Source of the DNA: a virus
Reading direction: 5' to 3' (one strand)
DNA: 34,861 bases
Virus record (IMG/VR): IMGVR_UViG_3300030329_004893
Location: 18,496 to 53,356 of that record
The translations under genes and the position numbers were made by a program. Shown here piece by piece: positions 1,755 through 34,861 of this stretch; within the stretch, counting starts at the first letter, position 1, and each line of letters opens with the position of its first letter. The notes beneath the pieces were generated by a model that did not search any database, had not been told where the DNA came from, and saw nothing but the letters and a program-made list of their open reading frames with translations.

Positions 1755-1755
1755 C

Positions 1756-2103
1756 ATGTATAGACCACTACCTTCAGAAGTGACAATCAATAAGTCACAC
1801 ATAGACGGTTTAGGATTATTTGCTACCTGTGATATCAAAGAGGGACATAATCTAGGAATAACCCACATTCACAATCATAACTTTGAAAATCAATATATAC
1901 GTACGCCACTGGGTGGATTTATCAATCATGCTAACGTGTCCAACTGCAAATTAATTAAATCAAACATAATTGTAGGAGACCATGACAAAGACTGGAAAAG
2001 GGAAACGGTGTTGATGTTAATTACGAAACAATTAATACCTGCTAATACAGAACTTACGACCTACTATTCTTTATATAACATATCAAACGAGGAGATGAAA
2101 TGA
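1756..2103 (+). CDS. minimal SET-domain protein (putative lysine methyltransferase)
   Basis: A 115-residue protein that consists of little more than a SET domain. SET proteins transfer a methyl group from S-adenosylmethionine to protein lysines. Visible motifs are GLGLFAT (18-24), the SAM-contacting GGFINHA with N57-H58, a following SNC at 62-64, and ELTTYYSLY (99-107), which carries the catalytic-type tyrosines. The size is close to vSET of chlorella virus PBCV-1 (about 119 residues), a known minimal viral SET enzyme. It starts one base after the stop of the polymerase N-half and overlaps the exonuclease gene by ATGA, so it is translated as part of the replication operon. No pre-SET or post-SET cysteine cluster is seen. 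The substrate is unknown; phage or host replication proteins are a guess from position. Confidence 0.8.
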   Translation: MYRPLPSEVTINKSHIDGLGLFATCDIKEGHNLGITHIHNHNFENQYIRTPLGGFINHANVSNCKLIKSNIIVGDHDKDWKRETVLMLITKQLIPANTELTTYYSLYNISNEEMK

Positions 2104-15043: not shown

Positions 15044-15319
15044 ATGTTTGTAAATGCGTTTGAAATTTTTTTACAAAGTTTAGCATATTCTTTTTGGCCT
15101 TTTATATTTATAATCATTAGTTTGTATATGGCAAATAAATATTTTAATCATGGCTATAAGCAAAAAATAGACAAAGACAAAAAAATTAGCGAAACAGGCC
15201 GCAAAGACGAAATGCAAAATTTGGCCGACAAAGCCATCAATTTCAAACCGCCTAAAATTGAAACTTCATTTGGCGAACAACGCATAGGTGAGGTGTATAA
15301 TCATGAGACGAAGGATTAG
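15044..15319 (+). CDS. small single-pass membrane protein
   Basis: A 91-residue protein of unknown function. Residues 10-32 (about FLQSLAYSFWPFIFIIISLYM) form one hydrophobic segment long enough to cross the inner membrane. The rest is charged and Lys-rich, with no further membrane segment. The basic residues directly after the segment favour a cytoplasmic C-terminus by the positive-inside rule. A ribosome binding site GAGGAA precedes the ATG. It overlaps the start of the actin-like gene by 17 bases, so the two are probably translated together; a membrane anchor for the actin-like protein is one possible role, by context only. Confidence 0.6.
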   Translation: MFVNAFEIFLQSLAYSFWPFIFIIISLYMANKYFNHGYKQKIDKDKKISETGRKDEMQNLADKAINFKPPKIETSFGEQRIGEVYNHETKD

Positions 15320-16554: not shown

Positions 16555-17604
16555 ATGGCAAATATTACAGTAGGTATTGCTGGATCAGGACACATGGGAC
16601 GGGCTGTTGCTTGGGCTATGGATAAGTTAGGCTATAGTCTTGTTATTTTAGACCAGCAACAACACTGTCTCTATAAATGTCAAGAACTATTACCAGAACG
16701 TCCACATAGGTTTATACGCGCAAAATCGTTTAAGTGTTTTAACAACTGTGATATGGTTATTTCTTCGTTACCGTTTCATCAAAATTTATCATTAGCGCGG
16801 TTTTGTATAGCTAATAATATTGCTTATTGTGATTTAGGGGGTAATGTACAAACAAGCCAATCTATTAATCATTTTGGTAAGCAGCAATCTCGCAATATAA
16901 TAATGACAGATTTGGGTTTAGCTCCCGGATGGGTTAATATAATTGCGGAACATATGTATCAGAAATATATATCTAAACACAATACAACTCCTACTGATAT
17001 TCAAATGAGGGTGGGTGGTTTACCACAACATCCGCAGAACACATTAAAATATGGCTGCACTTGGTCTTATGATGGGCTAGTGAATGAATATCGTGATCGT
17101 TGCAAAGTCTTACGACACGGTGAACAGATTATGGTTAATGGTATGCAAGGATACGAGTATCCAATTTATAGTGATATTGGACCCTTAGAAGGTTTCTATA
17201 CAAGTGGAGGAGTATCGCATACTATTGACACGATGCAAAGACGTGGTGTATTAAACTGTTCATATAAAACGCTACGATATCCTCAACACCATCAGATAGT
17301 TAATTTTTTAATTCATGAAAGCGGATTAGATGATAAGTCAATTATCGACATATTTAAAAAAACCTGTCCTCCGCAAGACGATTTAGTCATAATCCAAGTA
17401 AGAGTGAACGACTCATCTTTTGAACAAGTAATCAGATCGGACAGTCAGTTCTCCGCAATGCAAAAAGCAACTGGCTTTCCTATTGCGTCAGCCGCCCATA
17501 CAATCCTCATATCGGACGTAGAGACGGATGTTTTAAAATATAGCGACCTCAACTACCCCCAATTTAATAAAACCCTTGAACAATTATTCAACATAGCCAA
17601 TTAA
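16555..17604 (+). CDS. saccharopine dehydrogenase-like NAD(P)-dependent oxidoreductase
   Basis: A 349-residue oxidoreductase of the saccharopine/lysine-6-dehydrogenase type. The N-terminal Rossmann fold has G-x-G-x-x-G in VGIAGSGHMGRAVAWAM (6-22). MVISSLPFHQNLSLARFC and AYCDLGGN follow the order of this family, and DLGLAPGWVNIIA (about 122-134) is its hallmark catalytic-domain entry. The C-terminal part contains the alpha/beta substrate domain with GGLPQHPQNTLKYGCTWSYDGLVNEY and LEGFYTSGGVSHTI. Members act on lysine- or polyamine-derived substrates by reversible reductive amination or oxidation. In a phage it would be an auxiliary metabolic gene. Its stop overlaps the stop of the convergent gene at 17601-17604. 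The ribosome binding site TAAGGT precedes the ATG by 8 bases. Confidence 0.85.
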   Translation: MANITVGIAGSGHMGRAVAWAMDKLGYSLVILDQQQHCLYKCQELLPERPHRFIRAKSFKCFNNCDMVISSLPFHQNLSLARFCIANNIAYCDLGGNVQTSQSINHFGKQQSRNIIMTDLGLAPGWVNIIAEHMYQKYISKHNTTPTDIQMRVGGLPQHPQNTLKYGCTWSYDGLVNEYRDRCKVLRHGEQIMVNGMQGYEYPIYSDIGPLEGFYTSGGVSHTIDTMQRRGVLNCSYKTLRYPQHHQIVNFLIHESGLDDKSIIDIFKKTCPPQDDLVIIQVRVNDSSFEQVIRSDSQFSAMQKATGFPIASAAHTILISDVETDVLKYSDLNYPQFNKTLEQLFNIAN

Positions 17605-17879: not shown

Positions 17880-18560
17880 TCAACCATGAAGTCGATTTAA
17901 AATTTGAGCTATAATATCGTTACGTACTATATCGGTGCCTTCTAAGCTACATATCGATACACCGTCTAGTCCATCTAACTTATTTATACATTTTTCAAAG
18001 CCGCCCTTCATACTATCATAAAGATCGGTTTGTTGAGGGTCTCCATTTATTATAGCTTTAGAGTTACGACCAATGCGTGTTAAAAACATTTTTATTTGAT
18101 CAAATGTAGCATTTTGAGCTTCATCTAAAATCATAAATGTGTCATGAAAATTTCTTCCCCTCATATATTCTAAGGGACATAACTCAATAGTATTAGAATT
18201 ACGAAACACACGGAGTGCTTCTGATGATAAATATTTAGACATTTCTTCCAAGACTGGAATCAGATAAGGTTGAATTTTTGCTGTATAAGTTCCGGGCAAA
18301 TGACCAAGACCACGTCCCGATTCGATAGTAGGACGTGCAACAACAATTTTCTCAACTTGTTTAGTTAGTAGATACTGACATGCTACCCCAACAGCAATTG
18401 CCGTTTTACCTGAGCCTGCTGGTCCTGAACAAAATACAACATCTGAACGATGAATAGATTTTAAGTATTGAGACTGGTTCGGACTTTTAGGCTGTAAGGT
18501 TGTTTGTAAAGAATAGTTAGCATTGTCAGTATTATTATTTTTACGTTTTTTTCGAGCCAA
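17880..18560 (-). CDS. phoH: PhoH-family P-loop ATPase
   Basis: A 226-residue ATPase of the PhoH family. Walker A is GPAGSGKT (46-53) and Walker B is FMILDEAQ (about 142-149). The PhoH-specific VVARPTIESGRGLGHLPGT and GDPQQTDL follow in the right places. The first 30 residues are a Lys/Asn-rich, disordered lead. PhoH proteins are common in phages; their role is debated (RNA metabolism and phosphate stress are proposed). The start is TTG at 18560, 4 bases after the stop of the upstream gene, with no better ATG nearby. The gene lies downstream of tail genes on the same strand. Confidence 0.9.
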   Translation of the reverse strand: MARKKRKNNNTDNANYSLQTTLQPKSPNQSQYLKSIHRSDVVFCSGPAGSGKTAIAVGVACQYLLTKQVEKIVVARPTIESGRGLGHLPGTYTAKIQPYLIPVLEEMSKYLSSEALRVFRNSNTIELCPLEYMRGRNFHDTFMILDEAQNATFDQIKMFLTRIGRNSKAIINGDPQQTDLYDSMKGGFEKCINKLDGLDGVSICSLEGTDIVRNDIIAQILNRLHG

Positions 18561-19325: not shown

Positions 19326-21275
19326 TTATTCTGATGTTTCCTGTATAATTCCTGTATACCACATAATCACCGGCTCATTTTTCTCACACATACTAACACA
19401 TGTGTCTTCGCCGTCCGCTTCTCGACATAATATCTTGCCATATGATTCCGCAACAGCAGTTCCATCTCCACAGTTCACGTCCCGACCACACTGATTATAA
19501 TTAACCCAACAACCCCAGTCGATGTCTGTACCGTCTGCTGTGCCTACTATACCATTCTTCCAAGGCAGCAGCGACTCCCATCCGACTGTTTTACATTCAA
19601 TCGGATCGAACGGGATAATGTTCTCGTAACAACCCCAGAGAGAAGTCCACCATTTCGCACAAGGATAGTAATCGCCTTTCTCACACTCAGAAGCCCAGTT
19701 GGGTGGATCATATGGGCTGTTCGGTTCTAACGAGCCTAAGTTATCCCCACACGGAACCGGTTCGCCCCCCCAGTTTTCAATGGGCCGACAACCCACCGGG
19801 TCAACAGGCACAGCAGTCCAGTTGTTGGTATAACATGGGTAAGTGCTAGCCATAGGCTGAGTAACTCCGATAGTGAGTGTTGTGCGCTCATTTGTAGGTA
19901 TTGTGGCTGTATTCTCGCCTGTTGGTACGGGACGTTGGTCACAGCCGTTTGTTCTAGCACGACAATTATTGTGTTCTTTCCAAAAAACACCTCTTCGTTG
20001 TTCGGCGTCGGTATCGTTATAACCTGTTTGACAATCACAATGCATTAACCACGCACCAACTACCACCAATTTAAAATTTTGCTCATCAGTATGGCATTGA
20101 CCACTTACAATAAAATGAGTTCCCATCGGAGATTTAACAGCACTATTATGAGGAATCATATCCATATCAAAAGTCTGTGAGGTGTTAGAGGCTCGTGAGT
20201 TAGCCGATAGTGCTGTACCGGCATCCACTGAAGAAGGAGAAAACAGACTAGACTCTGAATGTGGTCCCCCCCAAGACCAACGATTGCCATGGCATTCGCC
20301 ATATTTATACACACATGGAGAGCAGGCTGAAGTTGCAGTCTTTGTTTCTAACTTATATTCTGGCGGCACGCCTTGCAGACACACTACGTCATCATTCTGT
20401 TTACATGGTGCCTCCAAGTCTAGCACGGGTGTGTAGTATGTATACGTATACTGTTCTTCGTTAGGTGCTATAGAAAATGTAAAACAATCCATATTACAGT
20501 CAAATCCTGCACGCTTGCCATGAGTAGCAGGGCCTCCTATGTTGTCGGTGAGCGGAGCGTGATCAGATCTAGGACAGGCCAAGAATGTACCAGCTTGGGC
20601 TCCATCTCGAAACTCAGGCGCACAGGGATGATCAGCAGGAATGCTTTGAACGTAGTTGTTGGTAAATCCAGTTCGACAACAACATAAAGAAGCTATTATA
20701 CCCATCCCACCACATTCGCCCGGAATACTATAAGAGGGTCGATCAGGTGTTGTAATATCACCCTTGCAAATAACTCCTTCATATCCCCATGCCTCTTTAT
20801 ACTTACCCTTTTTAGCAGAATCTGTATACTCTGCACCCTTAGGGCCTATGCCCTGATTCTGCTCCCAAGTGTCCTTCGTCCCCGCTCGACATTGCCACTG
20901 CGTACTATCGCTAGGAGAATTCTCAACCGCCATCGCTTGTGTCTTATAGCATTCGCTATCCCCCTGCGATAAATCAAATTGGATATTGCCCTCGCATTTA
21001 TGTTCTTTCCATTCTACGTCATAACTAGCTACTGGTCCTTCAATCGTAGTAAAATGAGGAGCCATAGTAACACAGGCATGAGTGGTAAAGGTCAAGCCCC
21101 CTTCAGGAGGACATGGACAACATCCACAATGACACGACTCACCAAGATCTGCCGCATCGAAACCATACCGGGTCCATGAGCTTGATTGTGTTGACCCACA
21201 ACATACACAGCATGGTTTTTCTGGAGCTTCGCCGGTCACACCGTCAACAATAGTTTTAATAAGTTTTTCACTCAT
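19326..21275 (-). CDS. very cysteine-rich 649-residue protein of the tail module
   Basis: A 649-residue protein with 45 cysteines (about 7 percent), many as CC, CxC or CxxC: KPCCVCCG and SCHCGCCPCPP near the N-terminus, SLCCCRTG near 200, HCDCQTG near 405, and a C-terminal run ending DTCVSMCEK. It is also rich in Gly, Pro, Trp and Tyr, has no strong hydrophobic segment, and no recognised domain. The start ATG at 21275 gives MSEKLIKTIV. The sequence is non-repetitive, unlike the protein encoded upstream. Position between the hub-like gene and the coiled-coil gene suggests a secreted-type or virion surface protein stabilised by disulfides or by metal. No signal peptide is seen. Function unknown. 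Confidence 0.6.
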   Translation of the reverse strand: MSEKLIKTIVDGVTGEAPEKPCCVCCGSTQSSSWTRYGFDAADLGESCHCGCCPCPPEGGLTFTTHACVTMAPHFTTIEGPVASYDVEWKEHKCEGNIQFDLSQGDSECYKTQAMAVENSPSDSTQWQCRAGTKDTWEQNQGIGPKGAEYTDSAKKGKYKEAWGYEGVICKGDITTPDRPSYSIPGECGGMGIIASLCCCRTGFTNNYVQSIPADHPCAPEFRDGAQAGTFLACPRSDHAPLTDNIGGPATHGKRAGFDCNMDCFTFSIAPNEEQYTYTYYTPVLDLEAPCKQNDDVVCLQGVPPEYKLETKTATSACSPCVYKYGECHGNRWSWGGPHSESSLFSPSSVDAGTALSANSRASNTSQTFDMDMIPHNSAVKSPMGTHFIVSGQCHTDEQNFKLVVVGAWLMHCDCQTGYNDTDAEQRRGVFWKEHNNCRARTNGCDQRPVPTGENTATIPTNERTTLTIGVTQPMASTYPCYTNNWTAVPVDPVGCRPIENWGGEPVPCGDNLGSLEPNSPYDPPNWASECEKGDYYPCAKWWTSLWGCYENIIPFDPIECKTVGWESLLPWKNGIVGTADGTDIDWGCWVNYNQCGRDVNCGDGTAVAESYGKILCREADGEDTCVSMCEKNEPVIMWYTGIIQETSE

Positions 21276-21287
21276 AATAAATCCTTT

Positions 21288-24200
21288 TTAATCATCACCA
21301 TTATCACAGTTGTTCGAGGGTGTTCCTACACTTTTTAAACAACCATCCTCAAACACGAATGTTCTTTTTATAGCAATAAATTGTGCTCCACTACAACACA
21401 CGTCGGTTACTAACGCAATGTCTTCGGTGTGACCCTCACTACAACCACCACCACTACCACAAGCTTCGATAGTATAATTGCCATTGCCATCTGCGCCGCC
21501 ACCTGCTGCTATTCTCAGCCCACTTCCAACAGTTAGACATGCTAACTCTTTGCAAGGAGTAACGGACATACCACCTTCACAGTTGTCATTGCCTGTTTTA
21601 ATCTTTGTTGGGGCTGAGCCCGATAGCATATAATGGCAGTCTTTATTTTCCTGCACGCCTAAACTTGTTATTTCCAAATTCTTTAATGTAAACTTCTTAG
21701 CAAATGTTCCATCAAAGTTTGTGCCTTTAACTAGTGATCCGTCTTCTAGATTTAGTCCGGGACCAATCATTATACAATCAGTTGGTGCGCACTCTGTATT
21801 CGTAGCACTATCTTCAGCACACCCTGTCTCGCCTATCTTGGTTCCACAAGCATCTATTTCCCACACACAGGTAGAAGCTTCCCCATCTTTCTTCTCCGTT
21901 ACCTGAAGTCCGCTACCAAACGTTAAACCTTCAAAGTAAGTTGTCGTAACCGAATCGCCACATGTTCCAGCTTTAGTAGCAACAGTCGGCCCATTAATTG
22001 TAAACGTTTCAGGGTCAGTAAACGCCCCGTGCAGCCCAGTACCAAAAACCAAACAGCCGCCAAAATCTTCACAGCCTACGGTAGCTCCATCATCATTACA
22101 ACCTACTGACGCAATTTTTATCCCCGAACCCCCCGACCCCGGTGTGCCACTTAATATCCACCGGCAATCGTCAACTCCCTCGTTCAGTGGCAATAATTCT
22201 AGACCTCCCCTTAGCGTCAAATTCTTAAAATACTTATTCTCAATTTTGGGGCCTTTTATTGTATTTGTTACGCCCTCTGTGCTAGCCAACTCTAAGCCAT
22301 CTCCAACCAGTAAGCACTGAACCACACGTTCCTGACCTTCGCACCCATCGGCAGGTGCGGTACATCCCACAGAGCCTAAAGGAAGTCCTGACCATTCGAG
22401 CGTTGGAGTACAGGTTCCTACACCCTCAATCTTTAAACCCTTGTTTATTGTCAAGCTCTGAAAAGAAGATGTTGTTCCGTCGTGATCTATTAATTGTGGA
22501 CCCACAACTTTAAACTCACAATCGCCTGCTTCGGTTTCCGTAAGTATTAACCCTGTTCCAAACGATAGTTTTGCAAATGGTTTTGCCTCCTGTGTAGTGT
22601 TACAATCTTCTGCTAGAATCTTAGGACCGCTAATAGTAATGGGTCCATCATCGTTTTTAAAATCTAACCCTTTACCAATCCAAAGCTCGTTGCTCCATTT
22701 CTTCACGTCCTTTACAACGTTCTCTCCAACCACCTCTCCACAGCCTACTTTACCAATCTGAATTCCGCAACTTGCAATATACTTGCTGGCGTCGTCTTTT
22801 ATTGCCCCTTCCGTTCCGTCCCTCAGCTCCAAACCATCACCAATCTCTAAGTTACAAAAATGAACTGGCGCTTCGTCGCTACCACATTTTTCACCAGCTT
22901 TCCACTTGTCGCCATTAGACGCTGGTGATGATACAGTTGGACCTTTTAGTGTAAACTCGCATTTACCAGCATCTTTCTCTTCAAGCAATAATCCATCTGA
23001 AATTATTAATTTATAAAATTCTTTCGGCTCTATCTTTGCAGTTTCGTCGCACTGCTGACCTTCCGTACCAATTTGTGGTCCTGTGATCTTATAGCATAAA
23101 TCGTACTCGTCTTCTTTGGTAAGTTTTAATCCCGTTGAAATATTTAATTTTTCAAATCTGGAAGGGGCGATATCGGGATGATCACAACTGTCCTTCATTT
23201 CAATATACATTGACGCGCTAATTGTGGCATTACAATCATTTCTTTCCAGTAAAATTCCCTCACCAACATTTAGCTTTGTAAAGCTAAACTCAGGAACGTT
23301 CTTTTTTGCCGTATCTTCTGATAAGCAGGTGTTATCGGGTGCGTCTTGATAAATATGAGGACCGGTAATCTTAAATATACAGTTGTTAAAGTTATCAACC
23401 CATAAACCACTCCCAAACCATAATTCTTGAAACGAATATGGACCGTCGTTAACGTCACAATCAACCAGCTTCACTCCCGGTCCTTCAATCTTCCACGTAC
23501 AAGAGGAAGAAGTCCAAGTAGGAGTAATACCTTTGCCAAACTCTAGTGTAGAAAAATGCTTTTCTGTTCCGTAACTTGCAGTCACACAACTATTATTGTG
23601 TTTGCCCTTCGGTCCTGCAACTTTAACATTACAATTACCATCTTTCTGAGGAAATAATCCAGTAGAAAAGATGAGCTTATCAAAAGCTTGATCTGCAAAA
23701 CTAGAGCCACCACCACACGGCGTATGAGACACTTTAGGCCCTGAAATTCTATAGTGACAATCACCATCCGCACTTGCAAATGTCAATCCAGTACCAATAA
23801 CGAGATTGCTAAAAGCAACAGGATTTTCATTTGTGTCGCAAGTGTTGTTTTGAAGAGTCGGACCACCAATGTTAAAATTACAATTAGCCTCATGGCTATC
23901 AGTTTTGATAACACGCAAACCGCTAGTGAATGTAACGGACTGAAATTGGGAATCGATTGCAGGATTACCACACATTGCTGCTTTAATCTTAGGCCCTGTA
24001 AGAGCAATTTCACATTTCGTAGCATCATAAGCATAATGTAAGCCAGTCCCAACAACAAGATTTTTAAATGCCACAGGAGTTGCAGGGCTACTACCACAAG
24101 GACTATGTTGAATAGTAGGACCAGCCACGTTAAACTTACAGGCATCTGCTCCAGCAGACCCTTCTTGTTTAACCCGCATACCGCTTACAAACGTTATTTG

Positions 24201-27200
24201 TGTAAAGTGATGATCAATATTGGTAGGATTTTCACAATCAGTCACCTTAATCTTAGGACCATGAATAACCACTTCACAATCTTTCACCTTCTCATAATGC
24301 AAACCACTACCAATAAGAAGTTTGGATAGGCCCTCAACAGATCCGTTCTCGCAACCACTTTCTTGAATGGTAGGACCAGCAATCTCCCACTCACACTCAT
24401 CACGCTTCACTGTTCGCATTCCACTTATAAATCTAATAGTGTCAAAAGCTTCTGCGATACCTTCGGCTGCGCCATTACACTTCCCCGATTGTATTTTAGG
24501 TCCGGTAATCTTAATATGACAAGCATTACCGTCTATGTCTGACTCCATAGTTATGCCGCTACCAATAATTAGTTTCTCATACGGTTTAGCTTCCGCAGTA
24601 GTGCCACATCCACTCTTTTGAATTTTTGGTCCTGCAATTTTCCATTCGCATCCGTCTTCGCTGATCTTTTGAGAAGTAAGACCACTTACAAATATAAGCT
24701 TGCTAAAAGATTCTGCTATACCCTGCGTTGAACCATCACACTTCCCAGATTGTATTTTAGGCCCTGTAAGTTCAACATGACAATATCTTTCAGGATCATT
24801 AGGATCTTCTGGTTGTGATAGTTGATAAAATCCTAATCCACTTCCAATCACCAAATTAGACAATCCCTGTCGTGAGCCATTATTATCGCATCCACTTTCT
24901 TGAATAGTAGGGCCAGAAATTTTCCATGTACATCCACTTGGATCGGTCTTAGCCAACCTCATACCACTCACAAAGATAAGTTTATCAAATGACTCCGGTT
25001 CATTTTGCGGTGTTCCCTGACAATCGCCAGACTGAATTTTTGGTCCAGTAACTACAAAATCTCCAATCCCTAAACCGCTTGGCCAATTTCCTTCTAAACC
25101 ACTTCCAATCATGAAACAGCCCGTTAAGCCCGTACAAGGATTGCACGCATCTTCACAACATCCAGTTGTTCCGACTTTTAAAACGCCACTTGTTCCTGAA
25201 GGAGGAGGTATAATCCAATATTTACATTCGGCGGTATCGTAATACGCCATAGCCTTTGCGCCTGACTCAATTTGCGTATTAGTCCAATTTTCTACATCAA
25301 TAGTGGGGCTTTCAACCGGTGATCCACCAGAAGTTATATCGTTCTTGGTTTTGATTACTATACCCTTACCATCAGCCCCCGGACCAATATTACCCGAAAC
25401 CTCTATTTGATAAAGTCTAAAAGCATTCGGTGAGGTCCACACACCTCTCTTACGATCAAAACGTAAATCAACAGGAGCAACCGGCCATGTACGAGAATTC
25501 GCCAACCAATCATCCTTAAATTCGTCTTTTAGATTAGAATAACTAGTCTGAAAACTACCTATCGAATCTCCTGCTTTATTAGGAATGGGCTTACCATTAA
25601 GATCATAACCCCAACCATGTATCATTAGTGGACCACGTAAAGCTAAAAATCTGTAGTCTTCATTATAATCACTTTGCAGAGAACCTCCTTCACTCATTCC
25701 TCCACTTTGCATTAATAACTTACCGGGATTGTTAGAACTCCACTCTTCGCCCGCATTACCTCTAGCTACGCCTTCAATATCATGGCCTTTAGTACTAGAT
25801 GCCGCACGACCATCGTCTTCTCCAATCCAAGTGTTGTCAATGTCTTTAGGATTTGTAAGAAAATTAAGATATTTAGCAGTAATATCTAACGGCTTAACAG
25901 CATTACCCTCGGCATCCATTACCGGAGGAGGAGGTCCAGTGCTATTACTCAGGTTGCTATCTGCGCCGCCGACGCTACCACAACTTCCAAAACTGGAAAC
26001 TACTTTAGGTAAATTACCTTTATCGCTTGATGAGGACTGTACGGGTCTAAAAAAACCATCCATAGTCATCATAGAAGTTTTATCAGCCTCTGATTTAGCA
26101 TAAAAAGGCATCGTGGTCTTAGTCGGTGATATTACTAATTTCCTTTGGAAATCAGCACTGCTATCGCTAAGCATTTTGCCCACAAAAGCCACGGCAGGAC
26201 TTTTCGGAGCTACATTGCCTTTACCAATATCAGAAGCTACAGAACCTGCCACGTCCGTACGACGTTCAGACGCACGAATTAAATTCCTTAAAGCAGAACG
26301 TGCCCTCATTTCTCGCTCGCCTTTTTGACGATTTAAACCAATTTGTTTAAGTCTTTCAGCATTACCTTTAGTAAATCTACCAAAAACTGGAGTAAAGCTA
26401 TTAACGGTATAGGTAGTAGTAACGCCATTAGTGCCCACAGAAACACTTATATTAGATATAACGGCGCCGCCTGTTAGGGTAGATCCCCACCCATAAAAAC
26501 TATAGTTAAAACCACCAATGCTTCTTTTTCGTGTGTCATAAGTGCTGCTTACCGCACCTCCGTCATTAATGTTTGACGCCAACGTACGTGTAGGTAAGCC
26601 GGGAACAGAAACCTCTCCTCTTGCCGCCTCTTGCTGCCAAGTCGAACTTTCTGCAATCTTAGCAGTACCTGCGGCATTCATAGAATCAAAGCCACCATAC
26701 TCCCACGGAACAAGCCCTTCGTCAACCTCTACGTTAGTACTGCCGGGGTCTGCTCCGGCTTGTTTCCACGGACCATAACAAGTCGTAGTACTTTGCAGCG
26801 GTACTCCAATACCTGCGGGATCAAGCTTATATGCTGGACCCAACGCATTAACAGTGGCACCTTGACCATCAAGTTTTTTCTTCGAATTGGATACGCCGTC
26901 CTGTTGCTCGACAGATGCATTAGTAGTAAGCTTACCAGTACTCTGGAAAACATCTATAGGACGATTAGTTTCAATACTGTCCTCATCAGCTTCAACGTCT
27001 ACAATACCATTGGACAAAGTAATCAAGGCCCCTCTGATACTATCTTTAGTTCCTTCAGGATCTTTGGGAGATCCTATAACCCACTTCTCATCGACGGTTG
27101 CTTTTATCCATATATCATTATTGTCTGGATCTACAATAAAGCTATCGTTATTAAGTCCTTTCGTATTGATATCATCTCCACTAGAAAACTTAACCATAGG

Positions 27201-28736
27201 TTGAACTTTACCGCTATCGTCCTTAAACATATCGCTAGCTATGCTAGGATTAGTTAAACCTAATATAGTCGTCGCGTCTGATGCGTAGTTTACGCTTGGC
27301 CATGCACCATCTGTCGATACTATATCACTATAGGTGACTTGGTCTGTATCACTATCAACCGACCTACAAATAACACTATCCAAAGAAAAATAAACTAAAA
27401 ACTGCTTACCATAAACGTCTGAAACATAGGAATTAAGCCAATGGTGAAGGCTTTTGGCGTCTCGAAGAGCTTTAGATGCAGGATCGCCAGTCGGATCATC
27501 GTCGTTAGTGCTAGTCTTGATATCCGCCGCATTATCTTGAGCGTTCGGATCAGCGCCTACAACATCCGTAAGTTTGAGTCCCAAAGTATCTGAAAAGTAC
27601 TTATAAAGCACACTGTTCTTATTGCCCGGATTCTGAATCAGTTTTTGAAAGCTTTCATAATTACCCGCTGCGGCTCTCAATTCATTTTCACCAACCCAAT
27701 TTTTATTTCCGGGAACAGGATCATTTAGAGCCAAATTAATTTTACGGAAATCTAATTCTACTTCCCAAGATAATGGACCCGACCCCTGTTTAGCTTTTAA
27801 CGGTACACCTTCAGCATCCCAACCCCAAAAAGGAGTCATACCCTGTTGGTTTGTACACTGATAATACTGTTTAACTTTTCCCCCAATAAGCATGGTTGAA
27901 TTAACTTCAGCACGTAACTCTTTACCTAGAGCTTTGCTTATTACATTTTGACCAGAAATAAATGACTGAATACCATTAATAGCTGGTTGATTTTTACGAG
28001 CTATAGTTACTACCTTAATAACATATTTGCCGAAACCCGGAAACATTTGCAGATAATAATCACAACCGGCATCTTCACAAACCTGATTCACTATATCGCT
28101 AACAGACATTGTCGGTCCAGTTAGACGATAATTGTTATTGGCTTGAGGAATGGAAGAAAGATCTAATATATAGCTATCGTTCTTAAAGGCTAAACCCTTA
28201 CAGTATGTGCCATTTCCTCCTATACCACCAGTTAATGCTTCTAAGCTCTGTTGTATCAAGTACCACGGAATACCACGACTAGTTCTGTTAGATGATCCGA
28301 ACCCTCCAGCAGGAGCACCAAAAATAGTACCGTTAAAATCCTTTTGAGAACAATTCCCACCCAGAGATTCTAAAAATCCATAAACATTAATAATATTATA
28401 AAAAGGGACCGGACCTTCGTAGTGATCCAAAATAACCTGAGTATTATCTAAAATAGGATGAGGAGAGATAAGTTTTACATTGTATAGCGCACCATCAGAA
28501 CCTTGTTTGGAATTCCATGACTGCACTAAACCACAAAAAGAAAAACTACCCATAGAAAATACAGCAGCTTGACCTACTGTTGGTTCAATAAAGGCCTCAT
28601 TACAATCAGCAGCTAAGTTAATAGTAACTTCCGAAGATTGACCTCCCCATCCCGCAGAGGCATTAAAGTCCACAACGCTAACACCTAAGAACTTAGCACC
28701 GGGAATAGAACCACAAATACTAGGCTGTTTGGCCAT
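21288..28736 (-). CDS. giant hub-like tail protein with about 27 cysteine-bearing repeats
   Basis: A 2482-residue protein, probably the tail-tip or baseplate hub and its fiber. The first 330 residues look like a tail hub: SVVDFNASAGWGGQSSEVTI, QAAVFSMGSFSFCGLVQSW and ISPHPILDNTQVILDHY follow the order of a hub domain with its beta strands. The middle (to about 1200) has ALRGPLMIHGWGYD near 1030 and PVDLRFDRKRGVW, a conserved stretch of large-phage tail proteins. From about residue 1207 to the end, 40-48 residue repeats follow with a core F-x-x-L-x-x-G-S-G-L and C-x-x-x-I-x-GP-x-I-x-x-x-x-C. Start ATG at 28736 has AGGAGA before it. The gene follows the 494-residue protein by 21 bases. Receptor binding or tail-tip fiber is the inferred role. 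Confidence 0.75.
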   Translation of the reverse strand: MAKQPSICGSIPGAKFLGVSVVDFNASAGWGGQSSEVTINLAADCNEAFIEPTVGQAAVFSMGSFSFCGLVQSWNSKQGSDGALYNVKLISPHPILDNTQVILDHYEGPVPFYNIINVYGFLESLGGNCSQKDFNGTIFGAPAGGFGSSNRTSRGIPWYLIQQSLEALTGGIGGNGTYCKGLAFKNDSYILDLSSIPQANNNYRLTGPTMSVSDIVNQVCEDAGCDYYLQMFPGFGKYVIKVVTIARKNQPAINGIQSFISGQNVISKALGKELRAEVNSTMLIGGKVKQYYQCTNQQGMTPFWGWDAEGVPLKAKQGSGPLSWEVELDFRKINLALNDPVPGNKNWVGENELRAAAGNYESFQKLIQNPGNKNSVLYKYFSDTLGLKLTDVVGADPNAQDNAADIKTSTNDDDPTGDPASKALRDAKSLHHWLNSYVSDVYGKQFLVYFSLDSVICRSVDSDTDQVTYSDIVSTDGAWPSVNYASDATTILGLTNPSIASDMFKDDSGKVQPMVKFSSGDDINTKGLNNDSFIVDPDNNDIWIKATVDEKWVIGSPKDPEGTKDSIRGALITLSNGIVDVEADEDSIETNRPIDVFQSTGKLTTNASVEQQDGVSNSKKKLDGQGATVNALGPAYKLDPAGIGVPLQSTTTCYGPWKQAGADPGSTNVEVDEGLVPWEYGGFDSMNAAGTAKIAESSTWQQEAARGEVSVPGLPTRTLASNINDGGAVSSTYDTRKRSIGGFNYSFYGWGSTLTGGAVISNISVSVGTNGVTTTYTVNSFTPVFGRFTKGNAERLKQIGLNRQKGEREMRARSALRNLIRASERRTDVAGSVASDIGKGNVAPKSPAVAFVGKMLSDSSADFQRKLVISPTKTTMPFYAKSEADKTSMMTMDGFFRPVQSSSSDKGNLPKVVSSFGSCGSVGGADSNLSNSTGPPPPVMDAEGNAVKPLDITAKYLNFLTNPKDIDNTWIGEDDGRAASSTKGHDIEGVARGNAGEEWSSNNPGKLLMQSGGMSEGGSLQSDYNEDYRFLALRGPLMIHGWGYDLNGKPIPNKAGDSIGSFQTSYSNLKDEFKDDWLANSRTWPVAPVDLRFDRKRGVWTSPNAFRLYQIEVSGNIGPGADGKGIVIKTKNDITSGGSPVESPTIDVENWTNTQIESGAKAMAYYDTAECKYWIIPPPSGTSGVLKVGTTGCCEDACNPCTGLTGCFMIGSGLEGNWPSGLGIGDFVVTGPKIQSGDCQGTPQNEPESFDKLIFVSGMRLAKTDPSGCTWKISGPTIQESGCDNNGSRQGLSNLVIGSGLGFYQLSQPEDPNDPERYCHVELTGPKIQSGKCDGSTQGIAESFSKLIFVSGLTSQKISEDGCEWKIAGPKIQKSGCGTTAEAKPYEKLIIGSGITMESDIDGNACHIKITGPKIQSGKCNGAAEGIAEAFDTIRFISGMRTVKRDECEWEIAGPTIQESGCENGSVEGLSKLLIGSGLHYEKVKDCEVVIHGPKIKVTDCENPTNIDHHFTQITFVSGMRVKQEGSAGADACKFNVAGPTIQHSPCGSSPATPVAFKNLVVGTGLHYAYDATKCEIALTGPKIKAAMCGNPAIDSQFQSVTFTSGLRVIKTDSHEANCNFNIGGPTLQNNTCDTNENPVAFSNLVIGTGLTFASADGDCHYRISGPKVSHTPCGGGSSFADQAFDKLIFSTGLFPQKDGNCNVKVAGPKGKHNNSCVTASYGTEKHFSTLEFGKGITPTWTSSSCTWKIEGPGVKLVDCDVNDGPYSFQELWFGSGLWVDNFNNCIFKITGPHIYQDAPDNTCLSEDTAKKNVPEFSFTKLNVGEGILLERNDCNATISASMYIEMKDSCDHPDIAPSRFEKLNISTGLKLTKEDEYDLCYKITGPQIGTEGQQCDETAKIEPKEFYKLIISDGLLLEEKDAGKCEFTLKGPTVSSPASNGDKWKAGEKCGSDEAPVHFCNLEIGDGLELRDGTEGAIKDDASKYIASCGIQIGKVGCGEVVGENVVKDVKKWSNELWIGKGLDFKNDDGPITISGPKILAEDCNTTQEAKPFAKLSFGTGLILTETEAGDCEFKVVGPQLIDHDGTTSSFQSLTINKGLKIEGVGTCTPTLEWSGLPLGSVGCTAPADGCEGQERVVQCLLVGDGLELASTEGVTNTIKGPKIENKYFKNLTLRGGLELLPLNEGVDDCRWILSGTPGSGGSGIKIASVGCNDDGATVGCEDFGGCLVFGTGLHGAFTDPETFTINGPTVATKAGTCGDSVTTTYFEGLTFGSGLQVTEKKDGEASTCVWEIDACGTKIGETGCAEDSATNTECAPTDCIMIGPGLNLEDGSLVKGTNFDGTFAKKFTLKNLEITSLGVQENKDCHYMLSGSAPTKIKTGNDNCEGGMSVTPCKELACLTVGSGLRIAAGGGADGNGNYTIEACGSGGGCSEGHTEDIALVTDVCCSGAQFIAIKRTFVFEDGCLKSVGTPSNNCDNGDD
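21290..25118 (-). repeat. tandem protein-coding repeats, about 27 units of 40-50 codons
   Basis: The C-terminal 1276 residues of the giant tail protein can be divided by eye into about 27 units. Each begins with a strand like F-(S/D)-K-L-I-(I/F)-G-S-G-L, has a Cys about 10-20 residues later in C-x-(W/F)-x-I, then GP-x-I and a second Cys. Two types alternate in the first part: IGSGL units ending GPKIQSGKC and FVSGM units ending GPTIQESGC. Later units diverge and gain extra cysteines. I count about 63 cysteines in this stretch. The form suggests a disulfide-stabilised beta fiber. Confidence 0.8.
24441..24800 (-). repeat. higher-order 261-bp repeat (one pair of units)
   Basis: The stretch around 24448-24510 and the stretch around 24709-24770 are visibly similar at the DNA level (ACACTTCCC-x-GATTGTATTTTAGG in both), offset 261 bases or 87 codons. 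This equals one pair of alternating repeat units, and marks a relatively recent duplication in the repeat array. A related copy lies a further 282 bases upstream near 25028. Confidence 0.65.
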
Positions 28737-28757: not shown

Positions 28758-30242
28758 TTAACATGATCCTATCTCCCAAGACTTACTTCTAGTATAGTGT
28801 CCTGCTGCCGCCTCCCAAGTTTCAGTATCGCTAGTAACAAATGAATTGTCTGGATCTGCGAAAAGAGTATCATATGCCGATACACTCTTTATATTAGTAT
28901 AATCAGATGTAGGTTTATATATAACATCAACAGAAACATCTTTCGTTTGAGGACCAGTTGCTCCCAAGCTTTGTAAAAGCGGACCATTGCTCCCTCTTCC
29001 TAAGATTGTAATTGAAGCATATAAGTCTGGACGACCATTTTCAGTAACTGAAATCGTTTCTGTTATTGCGCTCGAATCTATAAAGTCTAATCTATCATTA
29101 TAAGAATAACTATAGGTCACAGTTCCTGCTATAGGATTATAGCCAACAGTACTAGATAAAGGTAGTTGATGTAATGGATAACTGGGTTTGGCGGCTCGGA
29201 TATCGAGATGAGCTGTCTTCTCTAAAACTTTCTTTGCTCTGCTATAAAGAGATCCTGAAACGCTTGCCCATTTCGTCAAAGCTGCCTCAAATTTATCATT
29301 GCCTGTTGGAGGACAGTCATTTCCACACGGAATATAATCAATACCTTGAATAGTACCATTAACAGTAATACTAGTAAAAGGAGTGTCGGATGACTGTTCT
29401 GAGCTACCCTCAAAATCTTCAAGAGCACCATTCTCAGTAGCAGGCAAAGCAATATATGTTTGACTGCCAGCACAAGACCCATCACTTTTATTAACAGAGA
29501 GCGTTTTAAAAGTACTTCTAATATTTAGTCCGTCCACACACATAACGCCGCTAAAATAATCGCTAAAATCGCCCGTTGCACATAATTCAGATTGAACATA
29601 ATTCTTGGCGCGTTGCCATGGATCAATATAATCTTCGGTGTCTGTAGGTGCTAAAGAATCGCCTTGTGCTGAGACATTTTTGGTAATAGTAAATACCGAA
29701 GGTAGCTGTACGTTGAAAACGCTATCTGCGGCAGCAGTACCCACTCTCTCATTAAAAAATTCTATACTAGTATCTTGAGATAAGGATATAAGTCCCGATG
29801 ATGACATGTCTCCTTGACCGCCTTCCAATCCTACCGCTTCAGAGCGAGCACCAATCAAAGTCGGTAGTTCTAAAGTAATAGTATATGTTGCTTGTCTGAC
29901 ATAATTGTCACCAGCAGCATTAGCTATATCAATATTTATTACTTTAGGATATCCACTAATAATAGGATCTTTATCATCACATTTTAATAATAATACTTCA
30001 AAATCTTTTGCAAAAGCGTCTCTTAAATCTTGAGCGTCAGTGAGAACAGTGGTCATACCGCCCTTATTATCATCTAGGTTTAGTCCGGTAGGAAGTATGG
30101 TTCCATTAAGGGTAAGGGAGTACTTAGTTGCGATACCGGTATTGGAAGGAGTCTTTATAACTTCTTTATTAACCGTAAATAATGGTCTGGGGCTAAATTC
30201 ATAATCCCCATATTTAAATGTAATACCGTCGCCTAATGGCAT
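28758..30242 (-). CDS. tail or baseplate structural protein, hypothetical
   Basis: A 494-residue protein between the tape measure and the hub-like gene, so most likely a baseplate or tail-tip component. It is beta-rich and has no recognised catalytic motif. Visible stretches are YGDYEFSPRPLFTVNKEV near the N-terminus, SLTLNGTILP, and near 375-400 SSTVGYNPIAGTVTYSYSYNDR, followed by SITILGRGSNGPLLQSLGA; together they resemble a repeated beta-sandwich. Cysteines are few but conspicuous (SELCATG, CGNDCPP, and the last residue). AAGGGG lies 8 bases before the ATG at 30242. The stop of the tape measure gene lies 38 bases upstream. Confidence 0.6.
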   Translation of the reverse strand: MPLGDGITFKYGDYEFSPRPLFTVNKEVIKTPSNTGIATKYSLTLNGTILPTGLNLDDNKGGMTTVLTDAQDLRDAFAKDFEVLLLKCDDKDPIISGYPKVINIDIANAAGDNYVRQATYTITLELPTLIGARSEAVGLEGGQGDMSSSGLISLSQDTSIEFFNERVGTAAADSVFNVQLPSVFTITKNVSAQGDSLAPTDTEDYIDPWQRAKNYVQSELCATGDFSDYFSGVMCVDGLNIRSTFKTLSVNKSDGSCAGSQTYIALPATENGALEDFEGSSEQSSDTPFTSITVNGTIQGIDYIPCGNDCPPTGNDKFEAALTKWASVSGSLYSRAKKVLEKTAHLDIRAAKPSYPLHQLPLSSTVGYNPIAGTVTYSYSYNDRLDFIDSSAITETISVTENGRPDLYASITILGRGSNGPLLQSLGATGPQTKDVSVDVIYKPTSDYTNIKSVSAYDTLFADPDNSFVTSDTETWEAAAGHYTRSKSWEIGSC

Positions 30243-30280: not shown

Positions 30281-33200
30281 TTAAGATCCAGAAAAATCAG
30301 AATTGGCAGGCTCAGATGCTGAAATGGTGCCGCTATCACCACTAAGATCATTTCGAGCTTCTGGTTTAACAGCTTTTTCAATAGCAGTTTTAATTTCACC
30401 TCTAATTGTACTTATTACACCCTTACTCCAATCTTCTAAAACCTTACCTCCAACTAACTGAACAGTAATAGCTCCTAGCTGTCCTGTCATTTCAATTTTT
30501 GGTGGAATAGCTCCCTTAAATGCTCCCATAATCTTTTCAGCCACATAATCACCACCGGTTTCAAACACCAGACTCATCTTTTCAGCTAATTCTTTACCTT
30601 CCATTGTCTTACGTAGCTCGTCAAATACATTACCGCTGGCAGCATTTTTGTCGCCAGCCACATCTGATGGTGTGGGTGGATTGACTGGAGCGTTTCGTGG
30701 ATCAGTACTGTCTTTCTGAGCTTGAATATTATTTGCGACCTGTTGTTGTGTTTGTTGTCGTTTTACTTCTTGAGACAGGGCTCCTGTATTCATAGATAAT
30801 CCAGCATTTCTAATACTCAAATTATTAGAGTTTATCGCAGCATTTCTAAAACCAGCTAGTCTGCCAGCAGTATCGCCGGGACGCAACATAGCATCACTTT
30901 TCAATTGAGCAATCTCTTTACCTTCCTTTTTCTTTTTATCCCTATTCATAACTTTTTCTAAAGTTTTGTTGTCTTTTGCTGCATCGGCACTAGCCTTACG
31001 GTCGGCTTTGTACTTGTCTTTATCTATACCTGTTGCCCCAACAGGACGACCAGTAGCCGGATCTATCTTTACCACATCGTTCCTCGCTACGGGTGGCTGA
31101 ACTGTAGCGTTTCGTGGATCGTCAAGCTCGTCTTCCTTCTGAGCTAGGATTGATCCCCAACTATCTGGAATAGCGTCGAAAAGTGCAGTCGGTAAAGACG
31201 ACAAATCAACACCGGCATCTTGCAACACTTTTGTCAAGCCATCAATCATACCAGTTAATGCTCCAGTAGCAGCTCCTTCATCTTTTTTCTTAAGTTGAAG
31301 TCGTCCCCCTTCTCCTTTGACATACGTTTCACCGCCTATCTTGTATTCTTTTTCAGCAGCTTTTGCAGTTTTTTCAGCAACGTCTTTGGCTTCACTCTTC
31401 GGACCACCAGTACCTAATAATCCTATAATCGTATCCATTCGAACAAGAACATCTGAACAACATGCGCCAGCAGCAGTCCCCTCCTTGTTTTCTTCATCTG
31501 TTTTTACGTCTGAGGCCGTTGGTAGAGCTTCATCAGTCACTACTTTCCCTTTTATGCGCTTCTTTTTCGTTCCCGTTCCCTTCTGCCACACCGGTTTTGT
31601 TTGTGCGTAGGAAGAAGGATCAGTCATAGACACCACTCCCGCCGCTGCACCATAGGCAGATTTTCCGGCTTCCCACATCCGACCGGCTGTTCCCATGCAC
31701 ACACAATTTTTAATTTCGCCTAAAAGCTGAACTATAGAAGATAATTCAGGAATGGTAGCGGCTTGTTTGTCCTGTTCCGCAACCGCTATATCAGCTGCTG
31801 TTGTTGCTGCTTCTGCTTGCTGTTCTTTTTCTTTCTGTTTTATCTCTGCTGTGGTGAGATCCTCTGTAGGAACAAGCGCGGGTTGTATTGGAGCAGTTTG
31901 TGGTGGCGATGTCTTCTTTTCCTTTTCTCTTGCGGCTTCATCATCTTGCAATTGTTTTCTAGCGACCATTTTCTTTTTGAATTCTGTTTTGGATTCCAGA
32001 TTAGCCTCTGCTTTATCCAACGCCTTCTTTTTCTCCTGTTGATCTATTTTCGAATCTCGTTCTGCTTGTGCTGCTGCCGCATCACCGGCTGCTTTAACTC
32101 TTTCTTGTTTGAGTTTGTCGCTAATGTCCCCTTCGTCCTTTTTAGCCGCTTCTTGTTCTGCTTTTTCTCGTGCTTCCTTAACTTTGGTATCATGAGCATT
32201 TTGTGACTCAGTGAAAGCCTTCTGAGCCGCATCTCGTTCGGCTGTAGCCTTAGCCACGTCTTTATCTACCGATGCCATATCAGCAGCATCGAGCCCACCA
32301 CGCATCAACGCAAACTCTTGAACAGCATTTTCAAAATTCGTGACTGCCGTATTAAATCCTTGATCCGCATTATCTAATACCGTAGCCAGAGCTGCTTCTT
32401 CGCGCTCTAACATTTTTTGCATAACACCAACCTGCATATCTCCTATTTTTTCCATCTCCTTACCTAATAAGGCCGCTTCATTCTCAGCCTTAAACATTTC
32501 ATCCAAATTATCACGTAATATATCGCCCAACTTTTCCAGCTCTAAAGAATCAGCCAAACCGGAAAATGAACCAGCTAAGTTCGTCATTAAGTTATCCATG
32601 ACCTCGCCTCTAATGTCGGCCATAGCTCCAGCATCGCTAGTATCTACCCCTCTCTGTCTAGCAATATCTTCTGTTTTTCTTCGTATTTGTCCCATAATCA
32701 ATGGATCATTACTTTGAATTCTTCTCATCAAATCAGCGCCTTCTTGCCTATTCAGATCTTGATCAGAATCAAACATTTTTTCTACAGCGCTCAAAGGTGC
32801 AGTAATTTGCTGATTGAAGTCCTGTACTGACATTTCACCACGTTCCAACTTATCCAAACCATCAATAATACTAGTAACGGTTCCTCCAAAATCTTTTTGT
32901 CTAGCTTGTTGTTCAGCAATTTTAGCTTCAATCGCAGCTAACATTCTAGTATCATTCGACAACTGTCTTAAAGCAGCCTCTGTTCCATTAATCTCTCGAT
33001 TCAGCTTACCCAATTCCTCAGAGTTTTTCCTAACCTCCTCTGGAGTACCTTGTCCCTGTACCCCTTGCAATTTTTCACGCTTCTGATCCAGTGTTTCTAA
33101 ACGACCAAATAATGCGGCTGGATCGAGTACGTTACCAGTAAATGCAGTACCTTCTCCCGGTTTCAAACCACCCCTCATTTGAATGGTCATTCTTTTTTGT

Positions 33201-34861
33201 AAATCGCCTTGTGCTCGCTGAAAAGCACCCGCAGTGTTACCTAAAGCACTGTTAACTCTGTCGCGTATTGCTTCTTGTTTATCAAGCATACTTAATTCCA
33301 CTTCCATGCGACGTTTAGCCATTTGTTCCTGTATTCTTGCAATGTCCATTAAGGCATTTTTCATTTCCGCAACACTTTTATCAAAGCCAGCCATCTCTTC
33401 TTTAGTTGCATTAAATGCTTTACCTAGAAGATCACTAACATTTCCTCCTTCTTCAAACATTTCTTTAAGAGTGTCAAATGTAAATGCACTACCGCCTTGT
33501 CGGGAGGTTGCCCTACCTTCTTCTAATGCTGCCGTTAACGACTTTAACATTTCGGGAGGAAGGGAGCCACCAAATTCTAGCTGCACAGCATCGATGACTT
33601 CTTGATTGGTTAATTTTGCACCACCCGCTTGAGCAGCATCAAGCTTATCAACCACATTACGCATAGCAAGAGGAAAATCTCGACCTGCTTTTAACATTCC
33701 TGATGTATCACGAAAAGCTGCATCAGCTTCTGGAGTATTTCCTCCAAAGGCTTTCAATTGTCCTATAGATGAATCAATTTGTTGGTCGCTAGCAGAAGCA
33801 AGATTTTCAAAAGGATTAAATTGTTTAAATTCTCCAATAGTCTTTTCCCCAGTAATTTGTGCAAAGGCAGTTTTCATCTGATCGGCTACAAGTCCCATCT
33901 GAACAGCAATACCCTGTGTTCTTTCACCAAACCGTTCCAACCCCGCCACTAAAGCATCTAATGCTTTTCTCGATCTTTTTGCAGCATCTTCAATAACCTT
34001 CTGTTGTGCAGCGGCTACTTTCTTGGCATTGATCTCTTCCATTTGCGAAAGTATGATTTTCTCTACCATTTTTTTATGTTCGTCATCAAGACCGCTATTT
34101 TGAATAGCAGCTTTAGCCTTGCTCATATCGCCAGTTTTAACTAACTCATCAATGTCTAACTCACTTCTTAAGTTAACAAAGGCCGCTTTTAGTTCTTTTC
34201 CTCCCTCATCACCCAACAAATCTGCTTCAGCTCTAATACCATCAATTAATCCTACTTCTATCTTAGTAGCAGTTAATTTATTAAGCTCTTTAACAAATCT
34301 AGATGTTTCTCCTGTGCTACCATTGAGAACTGTATTCATCTGCTTAAAGGCCGAGGTTGTAAGACTAGCTTGTTCAGAAGGATTAAGATTTTGAGAGGTA
34401 GTTTCAATAGCTGCTATCTCTTTGACTTGGGACATATCAAGCTTATCAATTAAAGATCCAGATGCTTGATCCACAGCCTTATTTAAATTTTCTATAAACT
34501 CAGGAGTAATAGATTGAGCCGCCCTATCAAATGATAAAGCAGTATTTTGAATAGTCTTATCTGTAGTAAATAGAGCCGTTCCTAACCCAACCAGAGCACC
34601 CACCAATGCACCTGTAATAGCTCCCGCTAGAGTACCTATAACTGGAACAACACTTCCTATCGCACCTCCTAAAATGGCCCCAGCAACAGCACCTCCACCT
34701 GTAGATACTGCACCGCCGCTGATGCCTCCTGATGTCCCCGCCCATTTTTGAACAGTACCACCCGTACCTAACATTTGAGATAAGCCGAAACCACCCTCTG
34801 CTTTGTCAAAAGAAGCTGCCTGAATCTTATCAAAAGACTGTAGAGGTTTCGCTACAGCGCT
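30281..34861 (-). CDS. tape measure protein (5' partial)
   Basis: The visible part has about 1526 residues and the frame is open to the right edge, so the start is outside the window. An ATG at 34774 is internal, preceded in frame by SFDKIQAASFDKAEGGFGLSQ. Near it is a long Gly/Ala/Val hydrophobic region (about 34570-34715: VAGAILGGAIGSVVPVIGTL and onward), as in the membrane-inserting part of tape measures. Then come long helical and coiled-coil stretches rich in Ala, Glu, Lys, Gln and Asp, most marked at 31900-32480. The protein sets tail length and helps DNA delivery. Unusual are CVC near 31700 and CC near 31460, and two copies of DPRNA-x-V-x-PP near 31115 and 30690. Confidence 0.9.
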   Translation of the reverse strand, partial: SAVAKPLQSFDKIQAASFDKAEGGFGLSQMLGTGGTVQKWAGTSGGISGGAVSTGGGAVAGAILGGAIGSVVPVIGTLAGAITGALVGALVGLGTALFTTDKTIQNTALSFDRAAQSITPEFIENLNKAVDQASGSLIDKLDMSQVKEIAAIETTSQNLNPSEQASLTTSAFKQMNTVLNGSTGETSRFVKELNKLTATKIEVGLIDGIRAEADLLGDEGGKELKAAFVNLRSELDIDELVKTGDMSKAKAAIQNSGLDDEHKKMVEKIILSQMEEINAKKVAAAQQKVIEDAAKRSRKALDALVAGLERFGERTQGIAVQMGLVADQMKTAFAQITGEKTIGEFKQFNPFENLASASDQQIDSSIGQLKAFGGNTPEADAAFRDTSGMLKAGRDFPLAMRNVVDKLDAAQAGGAKLTNQEVIDAVQLEFGGSLPPEMLKSLTAALEEGRATSRQGGSAFTFDTLKEMFEEGGNVSDLLGKAFNATKEEMAGFDKSVAEMKNALMDIARIQEQMAKRRMEVELSMLDKQEAIRDRVNSALGNTAGAFQRAQGDLQKRMTIQMRGGLKPGEGTAFTGNVLDPAALFGRLETLDQKREKLQGVQGQGTPEEVRKNSEELGKLNREINGTEAALRQLSNDTRMLAAIEAKIAEQQARQKDFGGTVTSIIDGLDKLERGEMSVQDFNQQITAPLSAVEKMFDSDQDLNRQEGADLMRRIQSNDPLIMGQIRRKTEDIARQRGVDTSDAGAMADIRGEVMDNLMTNLAGSFSGLADSLELEKLGDILRDNLDEMFKAENEAALLGKEMEKIGDMQVGVMQKMLEREEAALATVLDNADQGFNTAVTNFENAVQEFALMRGGLDAADMASVDKDVAKATAERDAAQKAFTESQNAHDTKVKEAREKAEQEAAKKDEGDISDKLKQERVKAAGDAAAAQAERDSKIDQQEKKKALDKAEANLESKTEFKKKMVARKQLQDDEAAREKEKKTSPPQTAPIQPALVPTEDLTTAEIKQKEKEQQAEAATTAADIAVAEQDKQAATIPELSSIVQLLGEIKNCVCMGTAGRMWEAGKSAYGAAAGVVSMTDPSSYAQTKPVWQKGTGTKKKRIKGKVVTDEALPTASDVKTDEENKEGTAAGACCSDVLVRMDTIIGLLGTGGPKSEAKDVAEKTAKAAEKEYKIGGETYVKGEGGRLQLKKKDEGAATGALTGMIDGLTKVLQDAGVDLSSLPTALFDAIPDSWGSILAQKEDELDDPRNATVQPPVARNDVVKIDPATGRPVGATGIDKDKYKADRKASADAAKDNKTLEKVMNRDKKKKEGKEIAQLKSDAMLRPGDTAGRLAGFRNAAINSNNLSIRNAGLSMNTGALSQEVKRQQTQQQVANNIQAQKDSTDPRNAPVNPPTPSDVAGDKNAASGNVFDELRKTMEGKELAEKMSLVFETGGDYVAEKIMGAFKGAIPPKIEMTGQLGAITVQLVGGKVLEDWSKGVISTIRGEIKTAIEKAVKPEARNDLSGDSGTISASEPANSDFSGS

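What the first reader, a model, noticed from the sequence alone, without database searches (positions are those of the whole stretch)
21288..28736. Tail hub fused to a fiber of about 27 cysteine-bearing repeats
A hub-like N-terminus and a 1276-residue repeat array in one chain of 2482 residues. Each unit has a GSGL turn and two cysteines around an I-x-GP-x-I strand. This suggests a long, disulfide-laddered beta fiber on the tail tip, a form I cannot match to a described phage fiber.
Basis: partly seen in the sequence, partly recalled or inferred. Interest (0 to 1): 0.8.

Follow-up and report, generated by a model that had tools for sequence, protein, structure and literature searches.

The report
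Phage tail hub with variable-length fiber
This uncultured-phage gene encodes the hub that closes the phage tail, fused to a long tail of about 28 repeated, cysteine-paired units that probably forms a host-seeking fiber whose length changes strongly between related phages; the hub is a known kind, but the repeat matches no family in the databases searched.

Summary
The repeat array is real. The ORF (minus strand, 2482 aa) has a baseplate-hub N-terminus and about 28 units of about 43 aa. The hub part was supported by structure prediction: VgrG, PVC-spike, Mu gp44 and gp27-type hubs match with Z up to 14.3. It lies two genes behind the tape measure gene, as in other tails. I found 37 loci in uncultured-virus contigs that encode relatives of the hub, and none in 50,697 phage records, in one genome from each of 84,980 prokaryotic species, in Pfam or in PHROGs. 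Estimated n runs from 0 to about 28 and differs sharply between close relatives (28 vs about 4; 17 vs about 1; 16 vs 0). Of 93 units in 8 proteins, 66 carry exactly two cysteines. The units nearest the hub alternate in an A/B pattern. The most likely reading is a trimeric hub with a C-terminal central fiber, like the layout of lambda gpJ, built from an undescribed repeat. The fiber fold, trimer state and disulfides were not shown; the repeat model was uninformative (pLDDT 37.6).

The parts
21288..28736 (-). Hub-fiber fusion ORF, 2482 aa
   Evidence: no internal stop; homologous hub ORFs in 37 loci of uncultured-virus contigs, about 15 of them in the near group.
25197..28736 (-). Conserved N-terminal hub region, residues 1-1180; residues about 12-788 carry the hub fold (gp27/VgrG/Mu gp44 type) with long insertions
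   Evidence: AlphaFold pLDDT about 70-85 over most of residues 15-380, 420-580 and 640-780; Foldseek PDB E 2.2e-6, VIA Z 14.3 over 278 residues.
25152..25439 (-). Linker after the conserved RGVW motif, residues about 1100-1195, ending in YYDTAECKYW
   Evidence: RGVW motif in 11 of 12 relatives inspected; a YYD..C-type motif in several of them.
21501..25139 (-). Array of about 28 units of about 43 aa, consensus hF.kL.fGtGL.v....C.y.I.G..i....C
   Evidence: best-ordered part residues 1246-1680 (window 23697-25001).
21306..21473 (-). C-terminal cap, residues 2422-2477 (DVCCSG...IK..F.F..GCL)
   Evidence: 57% identical in L004; same motif, read by eye, at the C-terminus of L005, L009-L013, L016 and of L019, which has no repeats.
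28758..30242 (-). 494-aa tail protein between tape measure and hub, conserved in near relatives
   Evidence: Full-length homologs at 29-60% identity; no family match. Role inferred (distal tail or baseplate ring).
30281..34774 (-). Tape measure protein, 1497 aa (the open frame continues past the window edge)
   Evidence: Weak PHROG hit here; positional counterparts in L003 and L005 match PhageMin_Tail 4e-16 / 9.3e-11 and PHROG tape measure 6.6e-27 / 4.8e-8.
19326..21275 (-). Cysteine-rich neighbor, 649 aa, 6.9% Cys; possible partner of the fiber
   Evidence: A Cys-rich (4.7-10%) protein lies just behind the hub, or one gene further in L007, in L004, L005, L007, L009-L013 and L016, but not in L006, L014, L021 or the two distant repeat-less loci checked.

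Best explanation
The gene encodes the tail hub of a large uncultured tailed phage, with a central tail fiber built as a C-terminal extension of the same chain. Shown by sequence or modelling: the N-terminus has the baseplate-hub fold; the gene follows tape measure and a 500-aa tail gene; after a linker come n copies of an undescribed two-cysteine repeat; a cap ends the chain in many relatives; n varies from 0 to about 28. Inferred: as such hubs are trimers, three chains run together as one extended beta-rich shaft pointing away from the tail; the paired cysteines cross-link or clamp the shaft once the virion leaves the reducing host cytoplasm; the tip (cap and irregular last units) touches the receptor, and gain or loss of units sets the reach.
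For: Hub fold. Gene order TMP - 500-aa gene - hub. Family and array. Units found only inside hub ORFs in 21 phage records. Unit number differs sharply on the hub tree: window 28 / L004 ~4, L011 17 / L012 ~1, L003 16 / L014 ~1 / L021 0. The cap is retained in a hub with no units (L019). Purifying selection between L007 and L008: dN/dS 0.42 hub, 0.50 array. 66 of 93 units have exactly two Cys. Precedents: lambda gpJ trimer = hub domains plus C-terminal central tail fiber with a beta-prism shaft and receptor-binding tip (PMC11101478); phage Milano virion disulfides, with 1.4% Cys proteome-wide (PMC10811340) against 3.2% in this protein.
Against: The repeat model is uninformative (pLDDT 37.6, pTM 0.21), so there is no direct evidence for a rod, beta shaft or trimer. 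Cys pairs are not always kept: 21 of 93 units had an unpaired count (expected about 27 under independence). No host, virion or expression data.
Confidence: 0.62

Rival explanations
1. Beads on a string: each unit (or A/B pair) is a small independent two-cysteine beta domain, and the hub carries three flexible adhesive strings rather than one rod.
For: Each unit is about 43 aa with its own Cys pair and variable loops; linker lengths vary.
Against: A small independent domain would often fold in AlphaFold even with a shallow alignment, and it did not, though this is weak. The A/B two-unit period suggests neighbors pack against each other.
Confidence: 0.18
2. Single-chain beta-solenoid: each unit makes two rungs of one chain and the Cys form an intrachain ladder.
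For: Regular strand-turn-strand pattern and fixed Cys spacing of 14 in the first units.
Against: The loop between the GxGL strand and the first Cys varies widely in length, which solenoids tolerate poorly; the monomer was not predicted as a solenoid.
Confidence: 0.1
3. The paired cysteines bind metal ions or stay as free thiols rather than forming disulfides; the fiber itself stands as in the best explanation (so this rival overlaps it).
For: Co-retention of the two Cys is only slightly above independence.
Against: The typical two-Cys unit has no histidine or further Cys at conserved positions to complete a metal site (alignment A8).
Confidence: 0.25

Closest known systems
Lambda gpJ (hub with C-terminal central tail fiber)
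   Same: One chain with hub domains followed by a C-terminal extension, in a tail gene module. gpJ is a trimer that seals the tip and extends the central fiber (PMC11101478).
   Different: No detectable sequence relation; FNIII, alpha-helical shaft and Ig-like receptor domain of gpJ not detected; here 0 to about 28 two-Cys repeats stand in that place.
Baseplate hubs: VgrG1, PVC and AFP spikes, Mu gp44, MuSo2 43-kDa tail protein, T4 gp27, phage p2 baseplate hub
   Same: Fold of residues about 12-788 (Z 14.3 to 7.0, about 220-330 residues aligned).
   Different: Long insertions (the alignment spans about 780 residues for about 280 aligned), 6-13% identity, and no OB/spike or lysin module detected in the part modelled well.
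Triple beta-spiral fibers (adenovirus shaft, reovirus sigma1)
   Same: The first half of each unit (L.fGtGL.v) resembles the strand-turn-strand consensus with Gly/Pro at the turn (consensus from PMC3150272); repeats in series form a shaft.
   Different: Position c is hydrophobic in only 8% of units; unit about 43 aa, not about 15; two conserved Cys; trimer untested. Not filed as a member.
Agrobacterium phage Milano (disulfide-locked virion)
   Same: Cys-rich structural proteins in the tail region (PMC10811340).
   Different: Milano's disulfides are in sheath, tube and baseplate of a contractile tail; here Cys sit in a repeat array of the hub protein, disulfides unproven.

Membership tests
Phage baseplate/tail-tip hub (gp27/VgrG/Tal superfamily) | Hub fold | tested here: met
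   Foldseek E 2.2e-6 and 30 PDB chains at E <= 0.001, nearly all tail hubs or spikes; VIA Z 14.3, 48 chains at Z >= 8.
Phage baseplate/tail-tip hub (gp27/VgrG/Tal superfamily) | Gene order behind the tape measure gene | tested here: met
   TMP - 500-aa gene - hub in the window and near relatives; TMP identity in L003 and L005 by Pfam and PHROG.
Phage baseplate/tail-tip hub (gp27/VgrG/Tal superfamily) | Homotrimer at the tail end | not testable with these tools
   No multimer prediction on hand.
Lambda gpJ-type central tail fiber | Hub and fiber in one chain | tested here: inconclusive
   One chain with a hub and a repeat array is shown; that the array is a fiber is inferred.
Lambda gpJ-type central tail fiber | FNIII domains and Ig-like receptor-binding domain | tested here: inconclusive
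   No such Pfam match at E <= 1; structure of the C-terminal half not obtained.
Triple beta-spiral fiber | About 15-residue repeat, hydrophobic c, e, g, k, m and Gly/Pro at j | tested here: not met
   j Gly/Pro 89% and m hydrophobic 85%, but c only 8% (b 86% instead); e, g, k (and partly j) were fixed by the search pattern. Repeat length about 43, second half has a different turn.
Disulfide-crosslinked virion (Milano type) | Raised cysteine content of virion proteins | tested here: met
   3.2% Cys in the ORF, 6.9% in its neighbor, against 1.4% for Milano and 0.9% for T4 (PMC10811340).
Disulfide-crosslinked virion (Milano type) | Disulfides present in the particle | not testable with these tools
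   Needs virions.

The most novel reading that the evidence does not exclude
The array is a previously undescribed trimeric fiber fold with an A/B two-unit period and a cysteine ladder, used by a clade of uncultured phages as an extendable central tail fiber whose length is tuned by gain and loss of units between a fixed hub and a fixed tip cap.
Probability: 0.35. Interest if true: 0.7.

Novelty: new variant of a known kind. Interest (0 to 1): 0.5.

Why it matters
Tail hubs with fibers are well known, but here a natural series of relatives carries the same hub with 0 to about 28 units, which would let one test directly whether central-fiber length affects host reach, adsorption or particle stability. 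The repeat matches no family in Pfam, PHROGs or the PDB sequence set searched, so a structure could reveal a new fibrous beta fold, possibly disulfide-stabilised.

Tried and rejected
Shift-by-unit self-alignment for folding (A6) collapsed onto identical residues and was discarded. The six-unit model from a 12-row alignment gave pLDDT 37.6 and was not used for fold searches. The unit profile found nothing credible in PDB sequences (best E 0.67). The unit alignment was too variable for a collection scan. Tail sheath PF04984 was not found in 10 records, with three control genomes positive: fits a non-contractile tail but proves nothing, as the records may be incomplete and sheaths are diverse. 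Assembly collapse or artefact rejected as the cause of the different unit numbers: best unit-to-unit DNA identity in the window is 65%, far too low for collapse. Triple beta-spiral membership rejected on position c. Two annotation look-ups were mistaken calls and returned errors.

Full report
What is there. The ORF at window 21288-28736 is on the minus strand and reads 2482 residues without a stop. The window is part of a 53,356-base uncultured-virus record.

The array. About 28 units of about 43 residues follow the consensus hF.kL.fGtGL.v...C.y.I.G..i....C. A unit HMM built on window units found the same units in 8 other proteins in its first round, with at most one domain in shuffled controls. 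Twelve Cys pairs lie at exactly +14, against a shuffled mean of 3.1 and maximum of 10. The first 16 units alternate between two types: mean identity 0.43 at lag 2 and 0.31 at lag 1, permutation P 3.5e-4. Units are old: the best DNA identity between two units is 65%. Units past about residue 1950 are irregular.

Relatives. Tblastn found nothing in 50,697 phage records and the pattern scan found nothing in GTDB genomes. In uncultured-virus contigs, starting from one relative of the neighboring gene, I reached 37 hub loci. A near group shares 28-57% identity over the 1180-residue hub; a distant group aligns over about 800 residues and has no repeats. Complete hub ORFs of the near group are 1291 to 3085 aa long.

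Variable length between fixed ends. Unit numbers are HMM estimates or hand counts: window 28, L007 and L008 about 28, L003 about 16, L011 about 17, L016 about 11, L009 and L010 about 8-9, L004 about 4-5, L005 about 3, L012-L014 about 1-2, L015, L021 and L019 none found. On the hub tree large differences separate sister hubs. L004, 57% identical over the hub, keeps the first unit and the cap (57% identical over residues 2422-2477) but lacks about 23 units between. L019 has the cap directly after the linker. Some relatives (L003, L007, L017, L021) end differently. A unit profile hits only hub ORFs in 21 phage records. Between L007 and L008 both parts are under purifying selection (dN/dS 0.42 and 0.50); in L009 against L010 the hub is 71% and the tail 46% identical, so the array diverges faster.

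The hub. AlphaFold with 23 homologs gave pLDDT 61.7 overall and about 70-85 over most of residues 15-380, 420-580 and 640-780. The PDB search returned VgrG, PVC and AFP spikes, Mu gp44, MuSo2 and gp27-type hubs. The gene follows tape measure and a conserved 500-aa tail gene, as in other tail modules. The hub reading is therefore well supported. Residues about 830-1100 were not modelled with confidence.

How it most likely works. Hubs of this fold are trimers at the end of the tail (established knowledge). Lambda gpJ shows the plan: a trimeric hub that closes the tail and extends as a central fiber to the receptor (PMC11101478). By analogy the C-terminal array should leave the hub as three parallel chains. 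That it forms a beta shaft, and that the Cys form disulfides, is inference: the six-unit monomer model was uninformative, as would be expected of an obligate trimer or of a shallow alignment. Two Cys per unit is a family trait (66 of 93 units), and phage Milano shows that virions can carry extensive disulfides (PMC10811340). A Cys-rich neighbor (about 5-10% Cys) follows the hub in most repeat-bearing relatives and was not seen in L006, L014 and L021 or in the two distant loci checked, so the two may work together; L006 carries repeats without such a neighbor, which speaks against a strict link. The co-loss test of the two Cys is weak (66 both, 21 single, 6 none; 62.9, 27.1, 2.9 expected), so disulfide pairing within a unit is not established.

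Known or new. The hub is a known kind and hub-fiber fusion is a known plan. The repeat and its behaviour, 0 to about 28 units on one hub family, match nothing found in the libraries and papers searched, though most subscription papers and all preprints were out of reach. The first half of the unit resembles the triple beta-spiral consensus, but position c fails, so it is not filed there.

Noticed in passing
window 3-4410 (+): DNA polymerase III alpha is split over two ORFs (PHP and NTPase parts in 3-1754; finger, HHH and OB parts in 2764-4410), with a SET-domain ORF (1756-2103) and a DEDD-type exonuclease ORF (2100-2771) between them.
   Followed up: partly
window 15288-16529 (+); L004 14074-15300: Actin-like protein whose best Pfam match is Volactin, an archaeal actin family (E 1.3e-77); by eye almost identical between the window and L004 although their hubs are only 57% identical.
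   Followed up: partly
window 16555-17604 (+); L004 13004-14050: Saccharopine-dehydrogenase-like ORF next to the actin-like gene in both phages (E 2.8e-19).
   Followed up: no
L004 7979-11398 (+): The relative of the Cys-rich neighbor carries an extra N-terminal matrixin-type metalloprotease domain (HEIGHSLGLSH, PF00413 E 3e-11) that the window copy at 19326-21275 lacks.
   Followed up: partly
L005 16429-17931 (-): TnpB/Cas12f-like ORF (PF07282 E 2.6e-13) close to the hub genes.
   Followed up: no
window 17880-18560 (-): PhoH-like ATPase (E 6.9e-67) downstream of the tail genes.
   Followed up: no
L018 and L023, downstream of the hub: In the distant, repeat-less hub group a Cys-poor protein of about 1140-1160 aa follows the hub where the near group has the Cys-rich gene.
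   Followed up: no
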